From contig NZ_VLKH01000004.1 in the NCBI RefSeq assembly GCF_007830175.1, positions 346,399 through 410,398 on the forward strand: 64,000 nucleotides of DNA. Direction: 5' to 3'. Under the pieces are notes generated by a model. The model was not told the origin of the DNA. It made no database searches and saw nothing but the letters and a program-made list of their open reading frames with translations. Shown here piece after piece: positions 4,918 to 50,485 of this stretch. Both the position numbers and the translations under genes were made by a program. How positions within the stretch are numbered: the stretch's first letter is position 1; each line of letters begins with the position of its first letter. The stretch is from Sedimentibacter saalensis. Lineage in GTDB: Bacteria > Bacillota > Clostridia > Tissierellales > Sedimentibacteraceae.

Positions 4918-4976
4918 CTTAAATATATAGTTATCTCATAAATCACGGCAATCACTTCAGATTATTGACAAATCCT

Positions 4977-5006
4977 GACGGGCATTTCTTATGGCCCGTC
5001 TTTTTG
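4977..5006 (+). terminator. Intrinsic terminator after the ABC importer operon
   Basis: A GC-rich stem, GACGGGC (4977-4983) pairing with GCCCGTC (4994-5000), with a nine-base loop plus one base and then five T residues. Confidence 0.75.
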
Positions 5007-5788: not shown

Positions 5789-7261
5789 ATGGATAATTCA
5801 ATAAAAATTAAGCTGTCTATTTATGGACTGCTTTCAGCAGTGAGCTTCATATATTTAATACTTACTCACAACCCGGGAATAAGTGTTCCTGTATTTACAA
5901 TCATTCAGTTTGTTTCAATATTCACCTTAATCTACAAGCGTGAAGAGGCAAAAAATAAAAAAGGACTGTTAATGTTTGTTCCCATATTCATTTTGTCTCT
6001 TAACTATTACTTAAGCGGAAGTTATTTATGGAGAGCGCCTAATTTCCTGTGCACAATGCTGTTGTACAGCACCATGGTTGCAATTCTTACAGACAACTTC
6101 CCTGTGAAAGAACTGAGTTTCAAATTCTTATTTAAAATACTCGAACATGTTATTGTCCCATTAAGAAACTTCAACATTCCTTTTAAATGGATCAATAAGT
6201 ATAAAAGCGATGACGTGAAAAAAAAGCTTCATTCCAGCATAATACTCGGAATATTCATATCTCTTCCATTTGTAGTATTCCTGCTGATTATGCTGTCCTC
6301 TGCAGACCTTGTTTTCTCAGTCAAAGTTGAAAATACACTTGAATGGTTTTCAAAAATGCTTGATTTAGAGTTAATATTTAAAATCATTTTTGGAATGATT
6401 GCAGGACTGTATTTGTTTGGTCTAATATACATTGTATTTGCAGAGAAAAAGTCAGATTCCCAAAATGCAATTTTCACCTTAGAAATACGACCCAAAAATG
6501 TCGACACAATTGTCATAAATATTTTGCTTTCATCAATACTGCTGGTGTATACACTGTTTATTTTCATTCAGTTCAAATATTTATTTGCGGGTTCTGTCTT
6601 GCCGGGAAACTTAAATTACGCCGAATATGCCAGAAGAGGATTTTTTGAACTCATTTTCCTGAGCTTTTTAAATATTGGGCTTATATTACTGACAGTATAT
6701 TTATATAAAGAAAAAATTTATGTTCAAAGAAACAAATGGTCAAATCTTACAAAAATATTCATGATGTATCTGTGCGCAGTAACATTTGTAATGCTCATAT
6801 CTTCATTTTACAGAATGTATCTATACGACCAGGAATACGGATTTACACGACTTAGGGTCTTGGTTTACGGATTCCTCATATTTGAATCCATTGGTCTTAT
6901 AATTACTGCTGCATTTATAATGAGACCTGAATTCAATATTATGGCCGTATACATGGTTATTGGATTATGCTATTACTTGTGTTTGAATGTTGTTCAAATT
7001 GATTACATAATTGCCAAACATAATGTTGATATGTATCTTGCAAAAGAAACAGATTCGCTGGATATAGATTATCTCATGAGTTTATCTGTGGACGCGGCTC
7101 CACAGATAGCAAGGCTTGTAGAAAACAAAAATGCAGACATAATGACCAGGTATAAAGCAGATTTGTACTTTAAAGATATTGAAGAAAATTACAGCAGCGA
7201 TTCACTTTGGCAGAGCAGAAATTATTCCATCGACAAAGCCATACAGCTAATAAGCAAATAA
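5789..7261 (+). CDS. DUF4173/DUF4153-family polytopic membrane protein
   Basis: A 490-residue integral membrane protein with about twelve hydrophobic segments and a soluble C-terminal stretch of about 90 residues. The late segment YRMYLYDQEYGFTRLRVLVY is a hallmark of the DUF4173 family, whose function is not established. AAAGGAG precedes the ATG, and the gene follows the XRE gene by 3 bp as the last member of the operon. The stop codon is immediately followed by a 50-bp perfect inverted repeat (7264-7313). Confidence 0.8.
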   Translation: MDNSIKIKLSIYGLLSAVSFIYLILTHNPGISVPVFTIIQFVSIFTLIYKREEAKNKKGLLMFVPIFILSLNYYLSGSYLWRAPNFLCTMLLYSTMVAILTDNFPVKELSFKFLFKILEHVIVPLRNFNIPFKWINKYKSDDVKKKLHSSIILGIFISLPFVVFLLIMLSSADLVFSVKVENTLEWFSKMLDLELIFKIIFGMIAGLYLFGLIYIVFAEKKSDSQNAIFTLEIRPKNVDTIVINILLSSILLVYTLFIFIQFKYLFAGSVLPGNLNYAEYARRGFFELIFLSFLNIGLILLTVYLYKEKIYVQRNKWSNLTKIFMMYLCAVTFVMLISSFYRMYLYDQEYGFTRLRVLVYGFLIFESIGLIITAAFIMRPEFNIMAVYMVIGLCYYLCLNVVQIDYIIAKHNVDMYLAKETDSLDIDYLMSLSVDAAPQIARLVENKNADIMTRYKADLYFKDIEENYSSDSLWQSRNYSIDKAIQLISK

Positions 7262-7263
7262 AC

Positions 7264-7313
7264 CCGTGGACGGACCTTTTAATTTATAAATGAACTAAAA
7301 GGTCCGTCCACGG
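7264..7313. repeat. REP-like palindrome, copy 1
   Basis: Two perfectly complementary 18-bp arms (7264-7281 and 7296-7313) flank a 14-base loop. The core GGACGGACCTTTTA recurs at 10829-10876. Neither strand carries a terminal T-run, so it is not a standard terminator. It starts two bases after the DUF4173 stop codon. Confidence 0.85.
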
Positions 7314-7371
7314 AATGAATTATTTATACTGTATTAAAATAAAATCAACAAAGTAATTAGAGAGGTGTTTT

Positions 7372-9867: not shown

Positions 9868-10853
9868 TAGACATTTCAGACAAAATTAAAACTATACTTG
9901 AGCAACTTCCTGAGCTTCCCGGTATCTACAAAATGATTGATCAAAGAGGAAACATTATATATATTGGAAAAAGCAAGAGCCTTAAAAAAAGAGTGAAAAC
10001 TTATTTTGCAGATAATCCTAAGTGGGATAAAGTCAACAGAATGGTGCGACTCATTGACAACATTGAGTACGTGGTCACTGACACCCACTTGGAGGCAATG
10101 CTTCTGGAATGCAGTCTCATTAAATCCATACAGCCCATATTCAACTCTCAGATGAAAAATGACAAACGTTACGTCTATCTTAAAATAGAAGACTTCAACC
10201 GCCACAATTCCTTAAAGGTTACAAGCACAAGAGAAGAAAATTCCTTCGGACCTTTCAGGAACAAGTACATGCTGTATGATATCATGGATTCGTTAAAGAA
10301 TCTGTACCCCATAATAAAATCAAATGACAGCTATGATTTTGAATACAACCTCTTTCCTGTTTCCATGAACAAGGAAATTTTTCAGGAGAATAAAAAATCA
10401 TTGCTCCATTTGTTTTCTGACGAAAATAACTTTGATATTTTCATTAAAATTTTAAATCAAAAAATGCAGACAGAATCATCTCTGTGCAATTTCGAATCAG
10501 CAATAATGTACAGAAACATGATTCAAAACATGGAATATCTTAAAACAGCAATAAATAAATACAAAATCATCATGACTTCAAGCATATTTATAACAATACC
10601 GCTGAAAAATGGGTACAAGCTTTTTTTCATATCCGGTGGAAACATTGTTTTAAAAGAAAAATTATCTGAAACCAGCGAAATAAGTGATGAAACTAAAAAT
10701 GACTTCATCAGGCGGGGAATGAAATCAACAGAAAATTTTTTAGCTGACATGGACGAAAAATCGCACATGGATTACAGGGACATTCTGTATTCTGAAATAA
10801 TAAACCTTCCCGACGAATACAAGACTGTGGGGACGGACCTTTTAATTCAGTAA
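9864..10853 (+). CDS. UvrC N-terminal-like GIY-YIG endonuclease (Cho-type)
   Basis: A 329-residue protein matching the N-terminal half of UvrC. The GIY-YIG nuclease has GIY at 20-22, YIG at 33-35, Arg43 and a catalytic-Glu segment EAMLLE (77-82). A UVR-like helical hairpin follows (about 200-220, FESAIMYRNMIQNM). The C-terminal RNase-H-like nuclease and HhH domains of full UvrC (about 600 residues) are absent, as in Cho, the alternative 3'-incision nuclease. It is translationally coupled to a membrane protein, which is unusual for repair nucleases. The final residues GTDLLIQ and the stop are supplied by a palindromic repeat (10829-10876). Confidence 0.82.
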   Translation: MIDISDKIKTILEQLPELPGIYKMIDQRGNIIYIGKSKSLKKRVKTYFADNPKWDKVNRMVRLIDNIEYVVTDTHLEAMLLECSLIKSIQPIFNSQMKNDKRYVYLKIEDFNRHNSLKVTSTREENSFGPFRNKYMLYDIMDSLKNLYPIIKSNDSYDFEYNLFPVSMNKEIFQENKKSLLHLFSDENNFDIFIKILNQKMQTESSLCNFESAIMYRNMIQNMEYLKTAINKYKIIMTSSIFITIPLKNGYKLFFISGGNIVLKEKLSETSEISDETKNDFIRRGMKSTENFLADMDEKSHMDYRDILYSEIINLPDEYKTVGTDLLIQ

Positions 10854-10876
10854 TTTGAATTAAAAGGTCCGTCCCC
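10829..10876. repeat. REP-like palindrome, copy 2, forming the 3' end of the UvrC-like gene
   Basis: Two perfectly complementary 20-bp arms (10829-10848 and 10857-10876) surround an eight-base loop that contains the stop codon of the upstream gene. The core is shared with the copy at 7264-7313. The downstream NYN gene, on the other strand, ends six bases beyond. Confidence 0.85.
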
Positions 10877-10881
10877 GGAAT

Positions 10882-11781
10882 TTATTGTGTTTTCTTTTTT
10901 TTGTTGTAGGTTCTTTTTCGAACTTTTTGTGTTTTGGCTGGCTTTGCAGCTTCAGCATGTGATTCCTGCTCTGTTGGATTGTGCTTTAATGACACCCACA
11001 GAGATGTTCCTTCTGCTCCCTTTGTATGCATATCCAGGAAGTCAAATTTCTTTAAAAATTTAGAAAGCTTTGTATCACCGTAATTTCTCACGTCAAAGTC
11101 AGGATATCTTTTTACAAGCCTGCTTCCTAATTCTCCTATGTTCATGCTTTGATCTTCATCGTCTATTTCATTAACCATTTTGATAATTGCCATCTTAATG
11201 GTGTTTATATCAGTCATGGTCTTGTCATTTTTGTCTGTACTGTTTTTAGATGCTTTTGAAGTTTTATCTGCCTGACTATCCCCTTCTGTCTTTGACCCAT
11301 CGGTCCTTTGTCCTGAGGAATTGTCCGCAGCAATTTGATTTTCCGATTCTGCCAGCACATCCAGATATTTGAACTGATTGCATGAAGCAATAAATGGTTT
11401 TGGAGTCTTCCTTTCTCCCATTCCAACCACCAGCATGCCTGACTCTCTGAGCCTTGAGGACAGTTTTGTAAAATCGCTGTCGCTTGACACTATGCAAAAT
11501 CCATCAACATTGCCGGAATACAAAATATCCATGGCATCAATAATCATGGCTGAATCCGTGGCATTCTTTCCTACAGTGTAGCCATACTGCTGTATTGGAG
11601 TAACAGAATTTTCAAGAAGGACATCTTTCCATGATGAAGTATTGGGCTTTGTCCAATCAGCGTAAATTCTCTTGTACGTTGCAACACCGTAATTTGTTAT
11701 TTCGTCCAATATGTTTTTTATGTATTTTGCTGACACATTGTCCGCATCTATCAGCACTGCAAATCGTTTTTCTTCAACCAT
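10882..11781 (-). CDS. NYN-domain ribonuclease-like protein with C-terminal OST-HTH/LOTUS domain
   Basis: About 299 residues from ATG 11781, which has GGAGAG eight bases upstream. The NYN (PIN-like, LabA/DUF88) domain has metal-site acidic residues Asp12 and Asp14 in VLIDADN and the SSDSDF motif near residue 105. A polar linker rich in Ser, Lys and Asp follows. A LOTUS-type winged helix ends the protein (about residues 195-265; INTIKMAIIKM to FLKKFDFLD) with a basic tail, RKRTYNKKKK. The domain pair predicts an RNA-binding nuclease or RNA/DNA adaptor in the cytoplasm. It stands alone and converges with the UvrC-like gene. Confidence 0.82.
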   Translation of the reverse strand: MVEEKRFAVLIDADNVSAKYIKNILDEITNYGVATYKRIYADWTKPNTSSWKDVLLENSVTPIQQYGYTVGKNATDSAMIIDAMDILYSGNVDGFCIVSSDSDFTKLSSRLRESGMLVVGMGERKTPKPFIASCNQFKYLDVLAESENQIAADNSSGQRTDGSKTEGDSQADKTSKASKNSTDKNDKTMTDINTIKMAIIKMVNEIDDEDQSMNIGELGSRLVKRYPDFDVRNYGDTKLSKFLKKFDFLDMHTKGAEGTSLWVSLKHNPTEQESHAEAAKPAKTQKVRKRTYNKKKKTQ

Positions 11782-12010: not shown

Positions 12011-12427
12011 ATGAAAATAATACTTGAAGATTTGTTGGAAGAACTTAAAAAAAATAATATACGTCTTTCACATCAAAGATTGAAGGTATTGGAATTCCTT
12101 GTTTTAAATCAATGTCACCCTACAGTTGACCAGATTTACAACGGACTTCACAAGGATGTTCCAACTCTGTCAAAAACAACTGTTTATAACACTTTAAACT
12201 CATTGACCAGTGCAAATCTTGTAAAAGTCATAAACATTGAGGACAATGAAACCAGATATGACATAAACACCTTTAATCACGGCCACTTCAAATGTCAGCA
12301 GTGCAAAGAAATTTTTGATTTTGGAATAAACATGGATTCAATAAACACTGATGATTTAAACGGCTTTAAAACAACTGATAAAAACGTGTATTTCAAGGGC
12401 TTATGCCCTAAATGTTCAAATGCTTAA
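12011..12427 (+). CDS. perR: Peroxide-responsive repressor PerR (Fur family)
   Basis: A 138-residue Fur-family regulator with N-terminal winged helix (residues 1-85; TVYNTLNSL recognition region) and C-terminal dimerisation domain. The structural zinc site is Cys95, Cys98, Cys132 and Cys135. The regulatory metal ligands of Bacillus PerR are all present at equivalent places: His36, Asp84, His90, His92 and Asp103. This favours PerR over Fur or Zur. It has its own box at 11960-11976 and is followed by rubrerythrin in the same transcript, so oxidation of PerR should derepress a peroxide-scavenging enzyme. Confidence 0.88.
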   Translation: MKIILEDLLEELKKNNIRLSHQRLKVLEFLVLNQCHPTVDQIYNGLHKDVPTLSKTTVYNTLNSLTSANLVKVINIEDNETRYDINTFNHGHFKCQQCKEIFDFGINMDSINTDDLNGFKTTDKNVYFKGLCPKCSNA

Positions 12428-12470
12428 TCGCCGTAAGGCAGAATATAAAATAAAATTTATGGAGGATATT

Positions 12471-12965
12471 ATGGAAGATAACAAAACACTTAAAAATTTA
12501 ATGGATGGTTTCGCTGGAGAGTCACAGGCTAACAGAAAATACCTTGCATACGCAAAAAAAGCTGAAGCAGAAGGAAAAACTAATGCAGCTAAACTTTTCA
12601 GAGCAGCATCTGATGCAGAAGCATTGCACGCTCAAAAACATTTAGAAGTTGCAGGAAAAATCAAGACTACAGCTGACAACCTGGCAGATGCAGTTGCAGG
12701 AGAAACATTTGAATTTGAAAGCATGTATCCTGAATTCATTAAAGCAGCAGAAGCTGAAGGAAACAAAGCAGCAATTAATTCATTTACTTTTGCAATGAAA
12801 GCAGAAGAAGTTCACGCGAAATTATACAAGGAAGCTTTGGAAAATATAGACAATACAGAAGAAGTTACTTACTACTTATGTCCTGTATGTGGAAACATTG
12901 AAACATCTGTTCCTGATAAATGCAGCATCTGCGGCGTACCAGGCACAAAATTTATAAAGTACTAA
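12471..12965 (+). CDS. rbr: Rubrerythrin
   Basis: 164 residues from ATG 12471, which follows GGAGG by five bases. The N-terminal four-helix ferritin-like domain carries the two ExxH diiron motifs (Glu50/His53 and Glu112/His115) and further Glu ligands. The C-terminal rubredoxin domain has Cys137/Cys140 and Cys151/Cys154 for a mononuclear iron. Rubrerythrin reduces hydrogen peroxide to water in anaerobes using electrons from rubredoxin or NADH. It lies 43 bp after perR in the same operon. Confidence 0.93.
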   Translation: MEDNKTLKNLMDGFAGESQANRKYLAYAKKAEAEGKTNAAKLFRAASDAEALHAQKHLEVAGKIKTTADNLADAVAGETFEFESMYPEFIKAAEAEGNKAAINSFTFAMKAEEVHAKLYKEALENIDNTEEVTYYLCPVCGNIETSVPDKCSICGVPGTKFIKY

Positions 12966-12993: not shown

Positions 12994-13202
12994 AAACCGC
13001 TCATAATGAGCGATTAGATTGATGACAAGGTTATTAAATTAATTAATATTGGTAATTGTTGTGAACTTGAAATCTAAGTTCGTAGGGGAGAGCCTTGTGC
13101 TCTCCCGCAGATAACAAATTTTGAATTAATAGCCCCGGGAGGACACGAGGTCCTCCCCTACGGTTTGTCAATAGTCTGCCGCTCATAATGAGCGGTTTTT
13201 TT
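12994..13202. repeat. Terminator-nested small repeat element, copy A1
   Basis: This fills the 359-base gap between rubrerythrin and the hydroxylase genes. A stem-loop CCGCTCATAATGAGCG occurs at 12997-13012. It recurs as CCGCTCATAATGAGCGG plus seven T residues at 13179-13202, a real terminator. Between the two copies lies an element with outer ends GATGACAA (13021) and TTTGTCAATAGTCTG (13164-13178). An inner 82-bp module (13081-13162) is bounded by CGTAGGGGAG and its complement CTCCCCTACG and holds two strong hairpins. It is non-coding. The same inner module recurs near 50.2 kb. Confidence 0.75.
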
Positions 13203-16898: not shown

Positions 16899-17076
16899 GT
16901 TGCTCCATGATGCAGCAACTTCAGGTGGATGACAAATAAACTTTCGACGTTGTCATTCTGAGGGCTTAGCCCGAAGAATCTCAGGTTTTCAATAAAGATG
17001 AGATTCTTCACTATCGTTCAGGATGACTGCGTCAGTGTTTGTCAATGGTCTGAGTTGCTCCATGTTGTGCAGCAAC
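16899..17076. repeat. Terminator-nested small repeat element, copy B1
   Basis: Two near-identical stem-loops (16899-16919 and 17054-17076, both beginning GTTGCTCCATG and ending CAGCAAC) flank an element. Its outer ends are TCAGGTGGATGACAAA (16921) and TTTGTCAATGGTCTGA (17038-17053). The inner module (about 16945-17033) starts GACGTTGTCATTCTGAG and ends with the complementary GGATGACTGCGTC. It contains inverted GAATCTCA/TGAGATTC segments. Related copies are at 34473, 41273 and 47654. It fills the gap between the convergent hydroxylase and nagA genes and is non-coding. Confidence 0.75.
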
Positions 17077-41255: not shown

Positions 41256-41421
41256 AAAAAGGGCCTATGCCCAAGTTTAGATGATAAAGTATATATTTGG
41301 ACGCTGTCATTCTGAGAGCTTGCTCGAAGAATCTCATATTTTCAATAAAGATGAGATCCTTCACTATCGTTCAGGATGACAGCGTCAGCTTTTGTCAATA
41401 GTCTGAGGTAACTGCCTTTTT
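41256..41421 (-). repeat. Terminator-nested small repeat element, copy B3
   Basis: The outer segments AAAAAGGGC (41256-41264) and GCCTTTTT (41414-41421) are complementary and look like one terminator stem of the downstream P-type ATPase gene, split by an insert. The insert ends in TTTGTCAATAGTCTGAG (41391-41407) and has an 11-bp perfect inner inverted repeat, GACGCTGTCAT (41300-41310) with ATGACAGCGTC (41376-41386). The core has the GAATCTCA/TGAGATCC pair shared with the other B copies. Confidence 0.75.
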
Positions 41422-43950: not shown

Positions 43951-44057
43951 TATTATTTTTATTTTTTTGAAAATTTTTCTAATGTTTGTACACAATTACT
44001 TTGTTGTGCATAAAATAATGTACAAGATTCTTGTAAATTATTTTGGAGTTTGATATT

Positions 44058-44741
44058 ATGTACAAAAAATTTAACAATCCAGTCGCTCAGGGAAACTTGG
44101 GTACATGGAGAAACAATGGATGCTGCGAACATCCTGATAATGAAGAAAATGAAGATACAGTACAAATCATCGAGGATGTTGACAGCGACAATACAATTGA
44201 CATCAGCACATCAATCAGCATAAGCCAGACAGCTACATCTGCCGGAGGTGCCGGTGGTGACGGCGGCGACGGCGGAGAAGGCGGAGGTGCTTCACAGGCA
44301 TACGGACTTATAGCTGTGGCAATAAATGAAATTGAAGCAGGCATTGAAATTCCTACAGTTCCTGATGCATTGGGTGAGGGAGATACTGCACTTGACGCTG
44401 AACAAGTTAAACAGCTTCAGCAGTCAAGACCTCATCAAAATGATGACGGCGCAACTGCTTCAGGAGGAGATGCTAACGGAGGTGCCGGTGGTGACGGCGG
44501 TAACGCAACATCTCTAAACTATGCATCTGTGGTAGTTGACAATGTTGTTATCATTAACAGCAATGTGGATGGCGACGGACAATATCCTGCATACACCATA
44601 GGAACAGGCAACAGGAAACTTGAAATAAGAGTGGATGAAAACGGAGAAGCTTTTGTCAATGGCGCAAAGATGGATGAACAAACATTGGGAGACGGCACAA
44701 AGGTATTAATTTTTAGAGACAGCAAAGTGCAAAATTCATAA
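44058..44741 (+). CDS. Gly-rich acidic repeat protein, unknown
   Basis: 227 residues from ATG 44058; the in-frame TTG at 44043 overlaps the only ribosome site, TTGGAG. The protein has no signal peptide or helix. It contains a Ser/Ile alternating stretch (about 49-60), then Gly/Asp-rich tracts at 62-77 (GGAGGDGGDGGEGGG) and 136-149. Each tract is followed by a short hydrophobic beta segment (AYGLIAVAIN, NYASVVVDN), which suggests an internal duplication. The end is a small hydrophilic beta-rich domain. Composition is like spore-coat, exosporium or curli-like structural proteins, but no family is recognised. A Cys-Cys-His segment (GCCEH) lies near residue 21. Confidence 0.65.
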   Translation: MYKKFNNPVAQGNLGTWRNNGCCEHPDNEENEDTVQIIEDVDSDNTIDISTSISISQTATSAGGAGGDGGDGGEGGGASQAYGLIAVAINEIEAGIEIPTVPDALGEGDTALDAEQVKQLQQSRPHQNDDGATASGGDANGGAGGDGGNATSLNYASVVVDNVVIINSNVDGDGQYPAYTIGTGNRKLEIRVDENGEAFVNGAKMDEQTLGDGTKVLIFRDSKVQNS

Positions 44742-47544: not shown

Positions 47545-47638
47545 AGTCGTTCCCCTTCCTAATTTGTTATATAAATTATATTTCATATAAGAAAATATTA
47601 CAATATATTAAAATTTTATCAATTTCGATACAAAAACA

Positions 47639-47793
47639 GCCTCCAGTGGAGGCTTAGTTTGATGATAAGTATAAATTGGGCGTTCATACTTAGAGCTTGC
47701 TCAATCTCATGTTTTCGATAATGTGAGATCCTCGCTATCGTTCAGGATGACAGCGTCAGGTTGGACAATATTCCAATGGAAGCTTTCTTTCAA
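47639..47793 (-). repeat. Terminator-nested small repeat element, copy B4 (degenerate)
   Basis: GCCTCCAGTGGAGGC (47639-47653) is, on the minus strand, a terminator stem followed by TGTTTTTG. A diverged copy, TTCCAATGGAAGCTT (47771-47785), lies on the other side of the element. The insert begins GATGATAAGT (47661) and keeps the core GAGATCC...GTTCAGGATGACAGCGTCAGG but has lost part of the left half. It belongs to the same family as 16899, 34473 and 41256. Confidence 0.65.
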
Positions 47794-50202: not shown

Positions 50203-50485
50203 AAAACATCGAAGAATTTAAACGTAGGGAAGAACTACTGTTCTCCCGTAGATATTATAATTACTGAATCAATAACAACGGGCGGACACAAGGTCCGCCC
50301 CTACGTATTGCAATATTAGCATTATCGCGAATCTGGATTACAGTATGCAGGGGAGAACTACTGTTCTCCCGCAGATATTAAAATTACTGAATCAAAAAAA
50401 GGGCGGTCACAATCCGCCCATACAATTTATAAAAAATTTATAATTTGTATGACATCGTTATTCAACGATGTCTTTATATTTTTTG
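50203..50485. repeat. Two tandem copies of the CGTAGGGG repeat module, with flanking terminator pieces
   Basis: Copy 1 (50222-50306) is bounded by ACGTAGGG and CCCTACGT. Copy 2 (50343-50423) is bounded by GTATGCAGGGG and a degraded CCATAC. Both carry a GAGAAC...GTTCTCCC hairpin and a GGGCGG...CCGCCC hairpin, as in the copy at 13081-13162. An AAAAAACATCG fragment to the left (about 50204-50214) matches part of the terminator GACATCGTT/AACGATGTC at 50451-50472. So the elements again lie inside terminator sequence. Confidence 0.72.
50451..50482. terminator. Terminator between convergent TraX and NhaC genes
   Basis: Perfect nine-bp stem GACATCGTT (50451-50459) with AACGATGTC (50464-50472) and a T-rich tract on the plus strand. 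Confidence 0.75.

What the first reader, a model, noticed from the sequence alone, without database searches (positions are those of the whole stretch)
12994..13202. Small modular repeat elements nested in transcription terminators (copy A1 as type case)
The stem-loop CCGCTCATAATGAGCG occurs twice, on either side of an element with ends GATGACAA and TTTGTCAATAGTCTG. The same ends flank a different inner module at 16.9 kb and 41.3 kb, so ends and cargo look interchangeable. All six sites lie at gene 3' ends and in or between terminator hairpins. This suggests a mobile non-coding family that targets terminators, or that copies the hairpin when inserting.
Basis: seen in the sequence. Interest (0 to 1): 0.62.

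Follow-up and report, generated by a model that had tools for sequence, protein, structure and literature searches.

The report
Mini-transposons that duplicate transcription-terminator hairpins
The repeated pieces are small non-coding transposons of the IS1182 family that insert into the stop-signal hairpin at the end of a gene and copy the whole hairpin, whatever its length, so that one copy stands on each side; this shows a transposase choosing and duplicating a target by its fold rather than by a fixed length or sequence.

Summary
Observation confirmed; interpretation largely right. Copy A1 is a mini-transposon (MITE) of about 165 bp with terminal inverted repeats (TTAGATTGATGACAA / TTTGTCAATAGTCTG), inserted in the terminator of a rubrerythrin-like gene. 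The hairpin CCGCTCATAATGAGCG lies on both sides as a direct duplication. The end motif occurs 108 times in the genome against 8 for the reversed control. All six window sites are empty in a syntenic congener, G003, each with a single terminator hairpin.

No IS1182 transposase was found in this genome. The rule holds widely: 12 of 12 plasmid ISs from Bacilli, alpha- and gamma-proteobacteria, and 22 of 36 genome ISs (20 exact), carry palindromic duplications of 17-28 bp. A related family (G026) has 22 sites, 21 with 20-28 bp duplications centred on the hairpin.

So the target-site duplication is the terminator stem-loop itself, cut where the stem meets the A-tract and T-tract. This matches an outcome that Wan et al. 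2017 drew only as a hypothetical alternative to IS1272's stem-loop replacement. "Interchangeable cargo" is half right: the GTAGGGG module also exists without the ends; the GTCATTCTGAG module does not.

The parts
12997..13012 (.). Left copy of the duplicated terminator hairpin (CCGCTCATAATGAGCG), preceded by a short A-rich tract and not followed by a T-tract
   Evidence: single copy at the orthologous sites
13014..13028 (+). Left terminal inverted repeat of MITE copy A1 (TTAGATTGATGACAA)
   Evidence: same end in the genome's other copies; IS1182 ISs of the order have CAGACTGTTGACAAA or CAGATTGATTACAAA
13030..13162 (.). Interior of A1: GTAGGGG...CCCCTAC module with two hairpins. This module also occurs elsewhere as tandem arrays without the MITE ends
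13164..13178 (+). Right terminal inverted repeat (TTTGTCAATAGTCTG)
13179..13202 (+). Right copy of the duplicated hairpin followed by the T-tract: the complete intrinsic terminator for the upstream gene
12420..12965 (+). Upstream gene (rubrerythrin-like, 181 aa by eye) whose terminator was the target
   Evidence: same gene order with a single hairpin in congeners
16899..17076 (.). Second MITE with the GTCATTCTGAG interior, bracketed by GTTGCTCCATGATGCAGCAAC (16899-16919) and GTTGCTCCATGTTGTGCAGCAAC (17054-17076); ends 16920-16936 and 17038-17052
   Evidence: empty site with one hairpin in G003, the two alignment blocks overlapping by 25 nt
41261..41417 (.). Third MITE, same interior, between GGGCCTATGCCC (41261-41272) and AGGTAACTGCCT (41406-41417); right end 41391-41405
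   Evidence: empty in G003
47638..47785 (.). Degenerate MITE between AGCCTCCAGTGGAGGCT and TTCCAATGGAAGCTTT
   Evidence: empty in G003: AAAAGGACAGCTTCCATTGGAAGCTGTCCTTTT
50207..50472 (.). Two GTAGGGG modules between a hairpin remnant (ACATCG) and the intact terminator GACATCGTTATTCAACGATGTC (50451-50472); MITE ends lost or unrecognisable
   Evidence: empty in G003: AAAACATCGCTGAAATTCAACGATGTTTTT
4958..5000 (.). Solitary end CAGATTATTGACAAA (4958-4972) beside the terminator GACGGGCATTTCTTATGGCCCGTC (4977-5000): truncated copy
   Evidence: no such end in G003 or G022

Best explanation
Each element is a non-autonomous derivative (MITE) of an IS1182-family insertion sequence of the subgroup with ends CAGNYTNNTGACAAA. 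The transposase, supplied in trans, inserts at symmetrical A-tract/hairpin/T-tract terminators. It joins the element's ends at the two feet of the stem-loop, one on each strand. Gap repair then duplicates the complete stem-loop, so the target-site duplication is as long as the hairpin (17-30 bp) and has no fixed sequence. After insertion the left hairpin keeps the A-tract and the right hairpin keeps the T-tract, so transcription from either side can still terminate at the far end and neighbouring genes are spared. Shown here: element anatomy, single-hairpin empty sites, exact palindromic duplications, matching IS1182 ends, and cuts centred on the hairpin at the stem/A-tract border. Inferred: that the target is recognised as an extruded cruciform, that strand transfer is at the 5' feet (pathway b drawn by Wan et al. 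2017), and that an IS1182 transposase now missing from this genome moved these copies.
For: Genome-wide enrichment of the end motif, 108 against 8. Hairpin copies match within sites and not between sites. The six window sites are empty with one hairpin in G003, and A1 also in G022, G015, G021 and G019. G026: 22 sites, 15 exact, 21 of 20-28 bp, hairpin centre within 1 nt of the duplication centre in 20. IS1182 ISs with matching ends and direct hairpin duplications: L143, L146, L144 in the window's own family with an exact 28 bp duplication, and L145 (30 bp, imperfect). Plasmid ISs 12 of 12 exact. Genome ISs 22 of 36, 20 exact; pairing fraction 0.83 against 0.27 for shuffles. Cut-site preference A at -4 to -1 and AG just inside; 5' A-tract richer than at other terminators, 4.9 against 2.3 of 6, p=3e-7. 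Transposases match NF033551 (IS1182), PF05598 and PF13751.
Against: No IS1182 transposase (PF05598, PF13751) was found in the window's own genome or, by PF13751, in G003, so the partner is inferred from ends and behaviour. A:T pairs often continue beyond the duplication (up to 8), so the cut is at the GC-stem/A-tract border and not always at the foot of the longest possible cruciform. 14 of 36 genome ISs gave no scorable duplication, several because a contig ends there or ends are decayed. Many copies in this genome are old and their hairpin copies have diverged. No experiment shows a cruciform intermediate.
Confidence: 0.88

Rival explanations
1. Same IS1182 MITE, but the transposase dimer reads ordinary double-stranded DNA: two inverted AAAA|AG half-sites with flexible spacing, no cruciform. 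Hairpins are hit only because symmetrical terminators offer inverted half-sites.
For: There is a clear sequence preference at both cuts: A at -4 to -1, A at +1 (34 of 42), G at +2 (27 of 42). A-tracts continue to pair outside the duplication.
Against: Spacing ranges over 17-28 bp with intermediate lengths present (17-24, 27, 28), so the half-sites would face different sides of the helix. The stem interior is paired in nearly every case (mean 0.83 against 0.27) although inner sequence is unrelated, 21 of 21 distinct stem 6-mers.
Confidence: 0.25
2. The hairpins were doubled first (tandem terminator or recombination) and the element went between them without copying anything.
For: Some terminators in this genus do stand close together, e.g. 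a second hairpin at 16.86 kb.
Against: All six orthologous sites in G003 have one hairpin and no element. Duplications are exact and direct in recent copies and ISs. The A-tract lies only left and the T-tract only right, as expected if one terminator was split.
Confidence: 0.03
3. The hairpins belong to the element: its terminal repeats include a hairpin that changes by concerted evolution or gene conversion.
For: The two hairpins of one copy resemble each other and the whole array is an imperfect palindrome.
Against: Hairpin sequence is site-specific and resembles the single hairpin of the empty orthologous site. The conserved element sequence stops at the hairpin foot in MITEs and in 12 of 12 plasmid ISs.
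Confidence: 0.02
4. REP/RAYT-type (IS200/IS605-like, single-strand) mobilisation or a group IIC intron-like terminator insertion.
For: Both are known from general knowledge to use hairpins or terminators as targets.
Against: Those systems do not make long direct target duplications; here there are DDE-type ends, direct duplications and matching IS1182 transposases. No Rfam intron or other match in the window. The Y1 transposase family was not searched for.
Confidence: 0.02

Closest known systems
IS1182 family, ISBspe1-like members (annotated in PLSDB/RefSeq records as 'IS1182-like element ISBspe1 family transposase')
   Same: Matching terminal repeats (CAGNYTNNTGA[C/G]AAA), insertion into terminator hairpins, exact duplication of the whole hairpin
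   Different: Those carry a transposase gene; the window elements are about 110-180 bp and carry none, and no IS1182 transposase was found in this genome
IS1272 / TnSha1 (IS1182 family; PMC5678879, PMC4923244)
   Same: Same family; targets are inverted repeats, many of them terminators; no primary-sequence specificity
   Different: IS1272 deletes or replaces the stem-loop and makes no target duplication; here the stem-loop is duplicated. Wan et al. draw whole stem-loop duplication only as alternative pathway b in their Fig. 13
ISCbo5 / ISBma2 (IS1182) in Clostridium botulinum group III and C. novyi-NT (PMC3098183)
   Same: Insertion sites are hairpins at gene ends, described as likely transcription stop signals
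   Different: The text calls the sites hairpins and speaks of elements with or without a 'surrounding hairpin', but does not describe the duplication rule; those are full-length ISs
IS1182-derived MITEs of Methanosarcina acetivorans (ISMac2; PMC3852290)
   Same: MITEs of about 160 bp that are IS1182 derivatives
   Different: Reported duplications of 4 or 0 bp; no link to terminators stated in the passages read

Membership tests
MITE (non-autonomous IS derivative) | Short, no transposase gene, terminal inverted repeats, many dispersed copies | tested here: met
   About 110-180 bp in most copies; TIRs of about 15-16 bp; 108 end-motif hits in the genome; no ORF of 100 aa or more inside A1
MITE (non-autonomous IS derivative) | Target-site duplication and empty sites in relatives | tested here: met
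   Hairpin duplicated; six of six window sites empty in G003
MITE (non-autonomous IS derivative) | Autonomous partner with the same ends in the same genome | tested here: not met
   No PF05598 or PF13751 match in G000; partners with matching ends exist in the same family (L144) and order (L143, L145, L146)
IS1182 family (as source of the ends) | Transposase with NF033551 / PF05598 + PF13751 | tested here: met
   For partner ISs: L195 485.7 bits over the 270 cut-off for NF033551; the two halves of the L143 gene match PF05598 and PF13751 over their cut-offs and NF033551 at 228 and 221 bits (below the whole-protein cut-off, split gene)
IS1182 family (as source of the ends) | Terminal repeats match those of the window elements | tested here: met
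   CAGACTGTTGACAAA...TTTGTCATTAATCTG in S. faouarense and CAGATTGATGACAAA in a Vibrio plasmid IS, against TTAGATTGATGACAA...TTTGTCAATAGTCTG
IS1272-type stem-loop replacement | Target stem-loop deleted, no target duplication | tested here: not met
   The stem-loop is duplicated in 12 of 12 plasmid ISs, 22 of 36 genome ISs and 21 of 22 G026 MITE sites
REP / REPIN (RAYT-mobilised) | Y1 (HUH) transposase partner, no target duplication | not tested
   Y1 transposase was not searched; the long direct duplications argue against it
Group IIC intron | Intron RNA core / Rfam match, no duplication | tested here: not met
   No Rfam match in the window; duplications present

The most novel reading that the evidence does not exclude
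A broad subgroup of IS1182 transposases, in Bacillota and in alpha- and gamma-proteobacteria, are structure-directed DDE transposases that recognise an extruded cruciform at bidirectional terminators and strand-transfer at its 5' feet, so the target duplication has no fixed length and equals the hairpin. With IS1272, which removes the hairpin, one family would contain two opposite outcomes of the same structural recognition.
Probability: 0.55. Interest if true: 0.78.

Novelty: new variant of a known kind. Interest (0 to 1): 0.62.

Why it matters
Target-site duplications are usually taken as a fixed ruler set by the transposase. Here the ruler is the target's own stem-loop, and the rule holds over dozens of independent sites in several classes of bacteria, which makes structure-directed transposition directly testable in a laboratory strain. 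It also suggests how such an element can multiply to about a hundred copies without harm: it splits a terminator and leaves a working half for each neighbour. Genome annotators can use the rule to find element ends and to avoid calling doubled terminators separate features.

Tried and rejected
Rfam search of the window: no match. Search for IS1182 transposase in the window's own genome by PF05598 and PF13751: none. The idea that contig breaks in G026 hid a full-length IS was rejected: the broken contig ends carry matching hairpin copies and simply flank the same short element. The idea that hairpins might be inverted rather than direct copies was rejected where loops are asymmetric, e.g. CGCTCATAATGAGCG and CCGCTGATTTCTCAGCGG are direct. 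Other IS1182 subgroups in the order do not follow the rule: L140 no duplication; L151 and L169 about 9 bp within or near a hairpin. Literature: no paper in the held library was found that describes whole-hairpin duplication as an observed rule; Siguier et al. 2014/2015, cited by others for palindrome targeting, are not held, so prior description there or in ISfinder cannot be excluded.

Full report
CHECK OF THE OBSERVATION. The two copies of CCGCTCATAATGAGCG are at 12997-13012 and 13179-13194, and the element between them has the ends described. The same ends bound a different interior at 16.9 and 41.3 kb, and decayed copies lie at 47.7, 50.2 and 4.96 kb. The window is positions 346399-410398 of contig C4 of an assembly of 3.83 Mb. 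The right-end motif TTTGTCAATAGTCTG with up to two mismatches occurs 108 times in that assembly against 8 for the reversed control. Reading 30 of these with flanks showed one plan: A-tract, hairpin, TYAGGTTGATGACAAA ... TTTGTCAATAGTCTGA, hairpin, T-tract, with a different hairpin at nearly every site.

THE HAIRPIN IS A TARGET DUPLICATION. The hairpin copies at one site are direct repeats; where the loop is asymmetric this can be told from an inversion (A1, L034, L040, L041). Over 62 end pairs in this genome the two flanks of one copy match with a median score of 20 against 10 for swapped flanks, and 34 exceed the 99th percentile of the null (at least four elements are counted from both ends, and the lowest-scoring rows are probably not real pairs). 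The orthologous site of A1 in the congeners G003, G022, G015, G021 and G019 has one hairpin with a T-tract and no element. The other five window sites are likewise empty in the syntenic contig C14 of G003, each with one hairpin; at 16.9 kb the two alignment blocks overlap by 25 nt, the length of the duplication. G003 carries copies of its own (35 motif hits), so the family was active after the two split.

A SECOND, YOUNGER FAMILY. A genome of another genus of the same family (G026) has at least 40 copies of an unrelated interior with related ends, CAGATTGTTGACAAAG ... GGGTTTGTCAATAGCCT. Of 22 sites readable on both sides, 15 have exact duplications, 21 have lengths of 20-28 bp, and in 20 the centre of the hairpin is within 1 nt of the centre of the duplication.

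THE TRANSPOSASE. No IS1182 transposase was found in the window's genome, but searching 61 relatives with PF13751 gave ISs with these ends: L143 (406-1994, CAGACTGTTGACAAA ... TTTGTCATTAATCTG), L145 and L146, all with hairpin duplications (that of L145 is imperfect), and L144 in the window's own family with a 28-bp exact duplication. A named scan identified the L143 genome as Sporosalibacterium faouarense, order Tissierellales. The transposases match NCBIfam NF033551 (IS1182), PF05598 and PF13751; the gene in L143 is split by a frameshift.

HOW GENERAL THE RULE IS. Twelve plasmid ISs of this subgroup from Alkalihalophilus, Brevibacillus, Bacillus, Macrococcoides, Rhizobium (3), Aminobacter, Sphingobium, Vibrio, Salinivibrio and Acinetobacter were read; all twelve have an exact direct duplication of a palindromic hairpin of 18-27 bp directly beside the ends. 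Among 36 ISs from the genome scan, 22 have a scorable duplication of 17-28 bp, 20 of them exact; the others were cut by contig ends, decayed or not resolved by the script. The arms pair at a mean of 0.83 of positions against 0.27 in shuffled duplications, and all 21 analysed have different stem sequences. Pooled cut sites show A at -4 to -1 and AG as the first two bases inside. The 5' side of targets is richer in A than that of other hairpin-T-tract sites in the same loci (4.9 against 2.3 of six, p = 3e-7), so symmetrical, two-way terminators are preferred. A:T pairs frequently continue outside the duplication: the cut is at the border of the stem and the A/T tracts.

MECHANISM. The simplest reading is strand transfer of the element's ends to the two 5' feet of an extruded stem-loop, followed by repair, which duplicates the stem-loop. 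Wan et al. (PMC5678879, Fig. 13, read) drew this as pathway b, while IS1272 itself removes the stem-loop (also PMC4923244). What is shown here is the outcome, over many independent sites. That the enzyme reads a cruciform rather than flexible inverted half-sites is inferred; variable spacing and paired but unrelated stems favour it. The consequence for the host also follows from the layout: A-tract and T-tract end up on opposite outer sides, so transcription from either gene can still meet a complete terminator at the far end. This was not measured.

INTERIORS. The GTCATTCTGAG...CAGGATGAC interior had recognisable ends (sometimes decayed) in all 13 further copies read, so it is the MITE's own body. 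The GTAGGGG...CCCCTAC interior also stands alone in tandem arrays without ends, so it is a separate repeat that sits inside some copies.

WHAT IS KNOWN AND WHAT IS NEW. IS1182 members that target palindromes or gene-end hairpins are known (PMC3098183, PMC4923244, PMC5678879), and IS1182 MITEs are known from Methanosarcina with 0 or 4 bp duplications (PMC3852290). I found no paper in the held library that documents whole-hairpin duplication as a rule. The main reviews and ISfinder could not be read, and from memory the ISfinder family table gives a wide range of direct-repeat lengths for IS1182, so the raw fact may be recorded there. I therefore call this a new variant of a known kind.

Noticed in passing
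L319-L324 (G000 contigs C14, C1, C6): GTAGGGG...CCCCTAC repeats stand in tandem arrays of several units between genes, without MITE ends; some copies sit inside MITEs. Their own mode of spread is unknown.
   Followed up: partly
window 7250-7335 and 10831-10900: Another repeated inverted motif (GGACGGACCTTTTAATTCA / TGAATTAAAAGGTCCGTCC) at two gene ends, unrelated to the MITE.
   Followed up: no
L277, L046 and L108 (G000:C10 near 39,000; G003:C32 near 218,400): Two elements in tandem sharing one hairpin between them (hairpin-element-hairpin-element), as expected if a duplicated hairpin is hit again. The same arrangement lies in both species, so it is probably an older shared insertion.
   Followed up: partly
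L151 (1365-3070) and L169 (1377-3096): Other IS1182 subgroups show about 9 bp duplications within or near a hairpin, possibly the loop-type outcome (pathway c of Wan et al.).
   Followed up: partly
L326 (2730-2802), Macrococcoides canis plasmid pB8: Directly after the duplicated hairpin of one IS come further IS1182-like ends, suggesting repeated insertion at the same terminator.
   Followed up: no
L091-L107, L110-L139 (G026): The interior of the G026 MITE carries a second, inner end-like sequence (CAGGCTTTTGAGAAA) close to its left end, so it may be a fusion of nested elements. Three contig breaks of that assembly fall inside copies.
   Followed up: partly
window 44234-44505: Short in-frame repeats coding a glycine-rich stretch (CGGAGGTGCCGGTGGTGACGG units) in the ORF at 44043-44741.
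   Followed up: no
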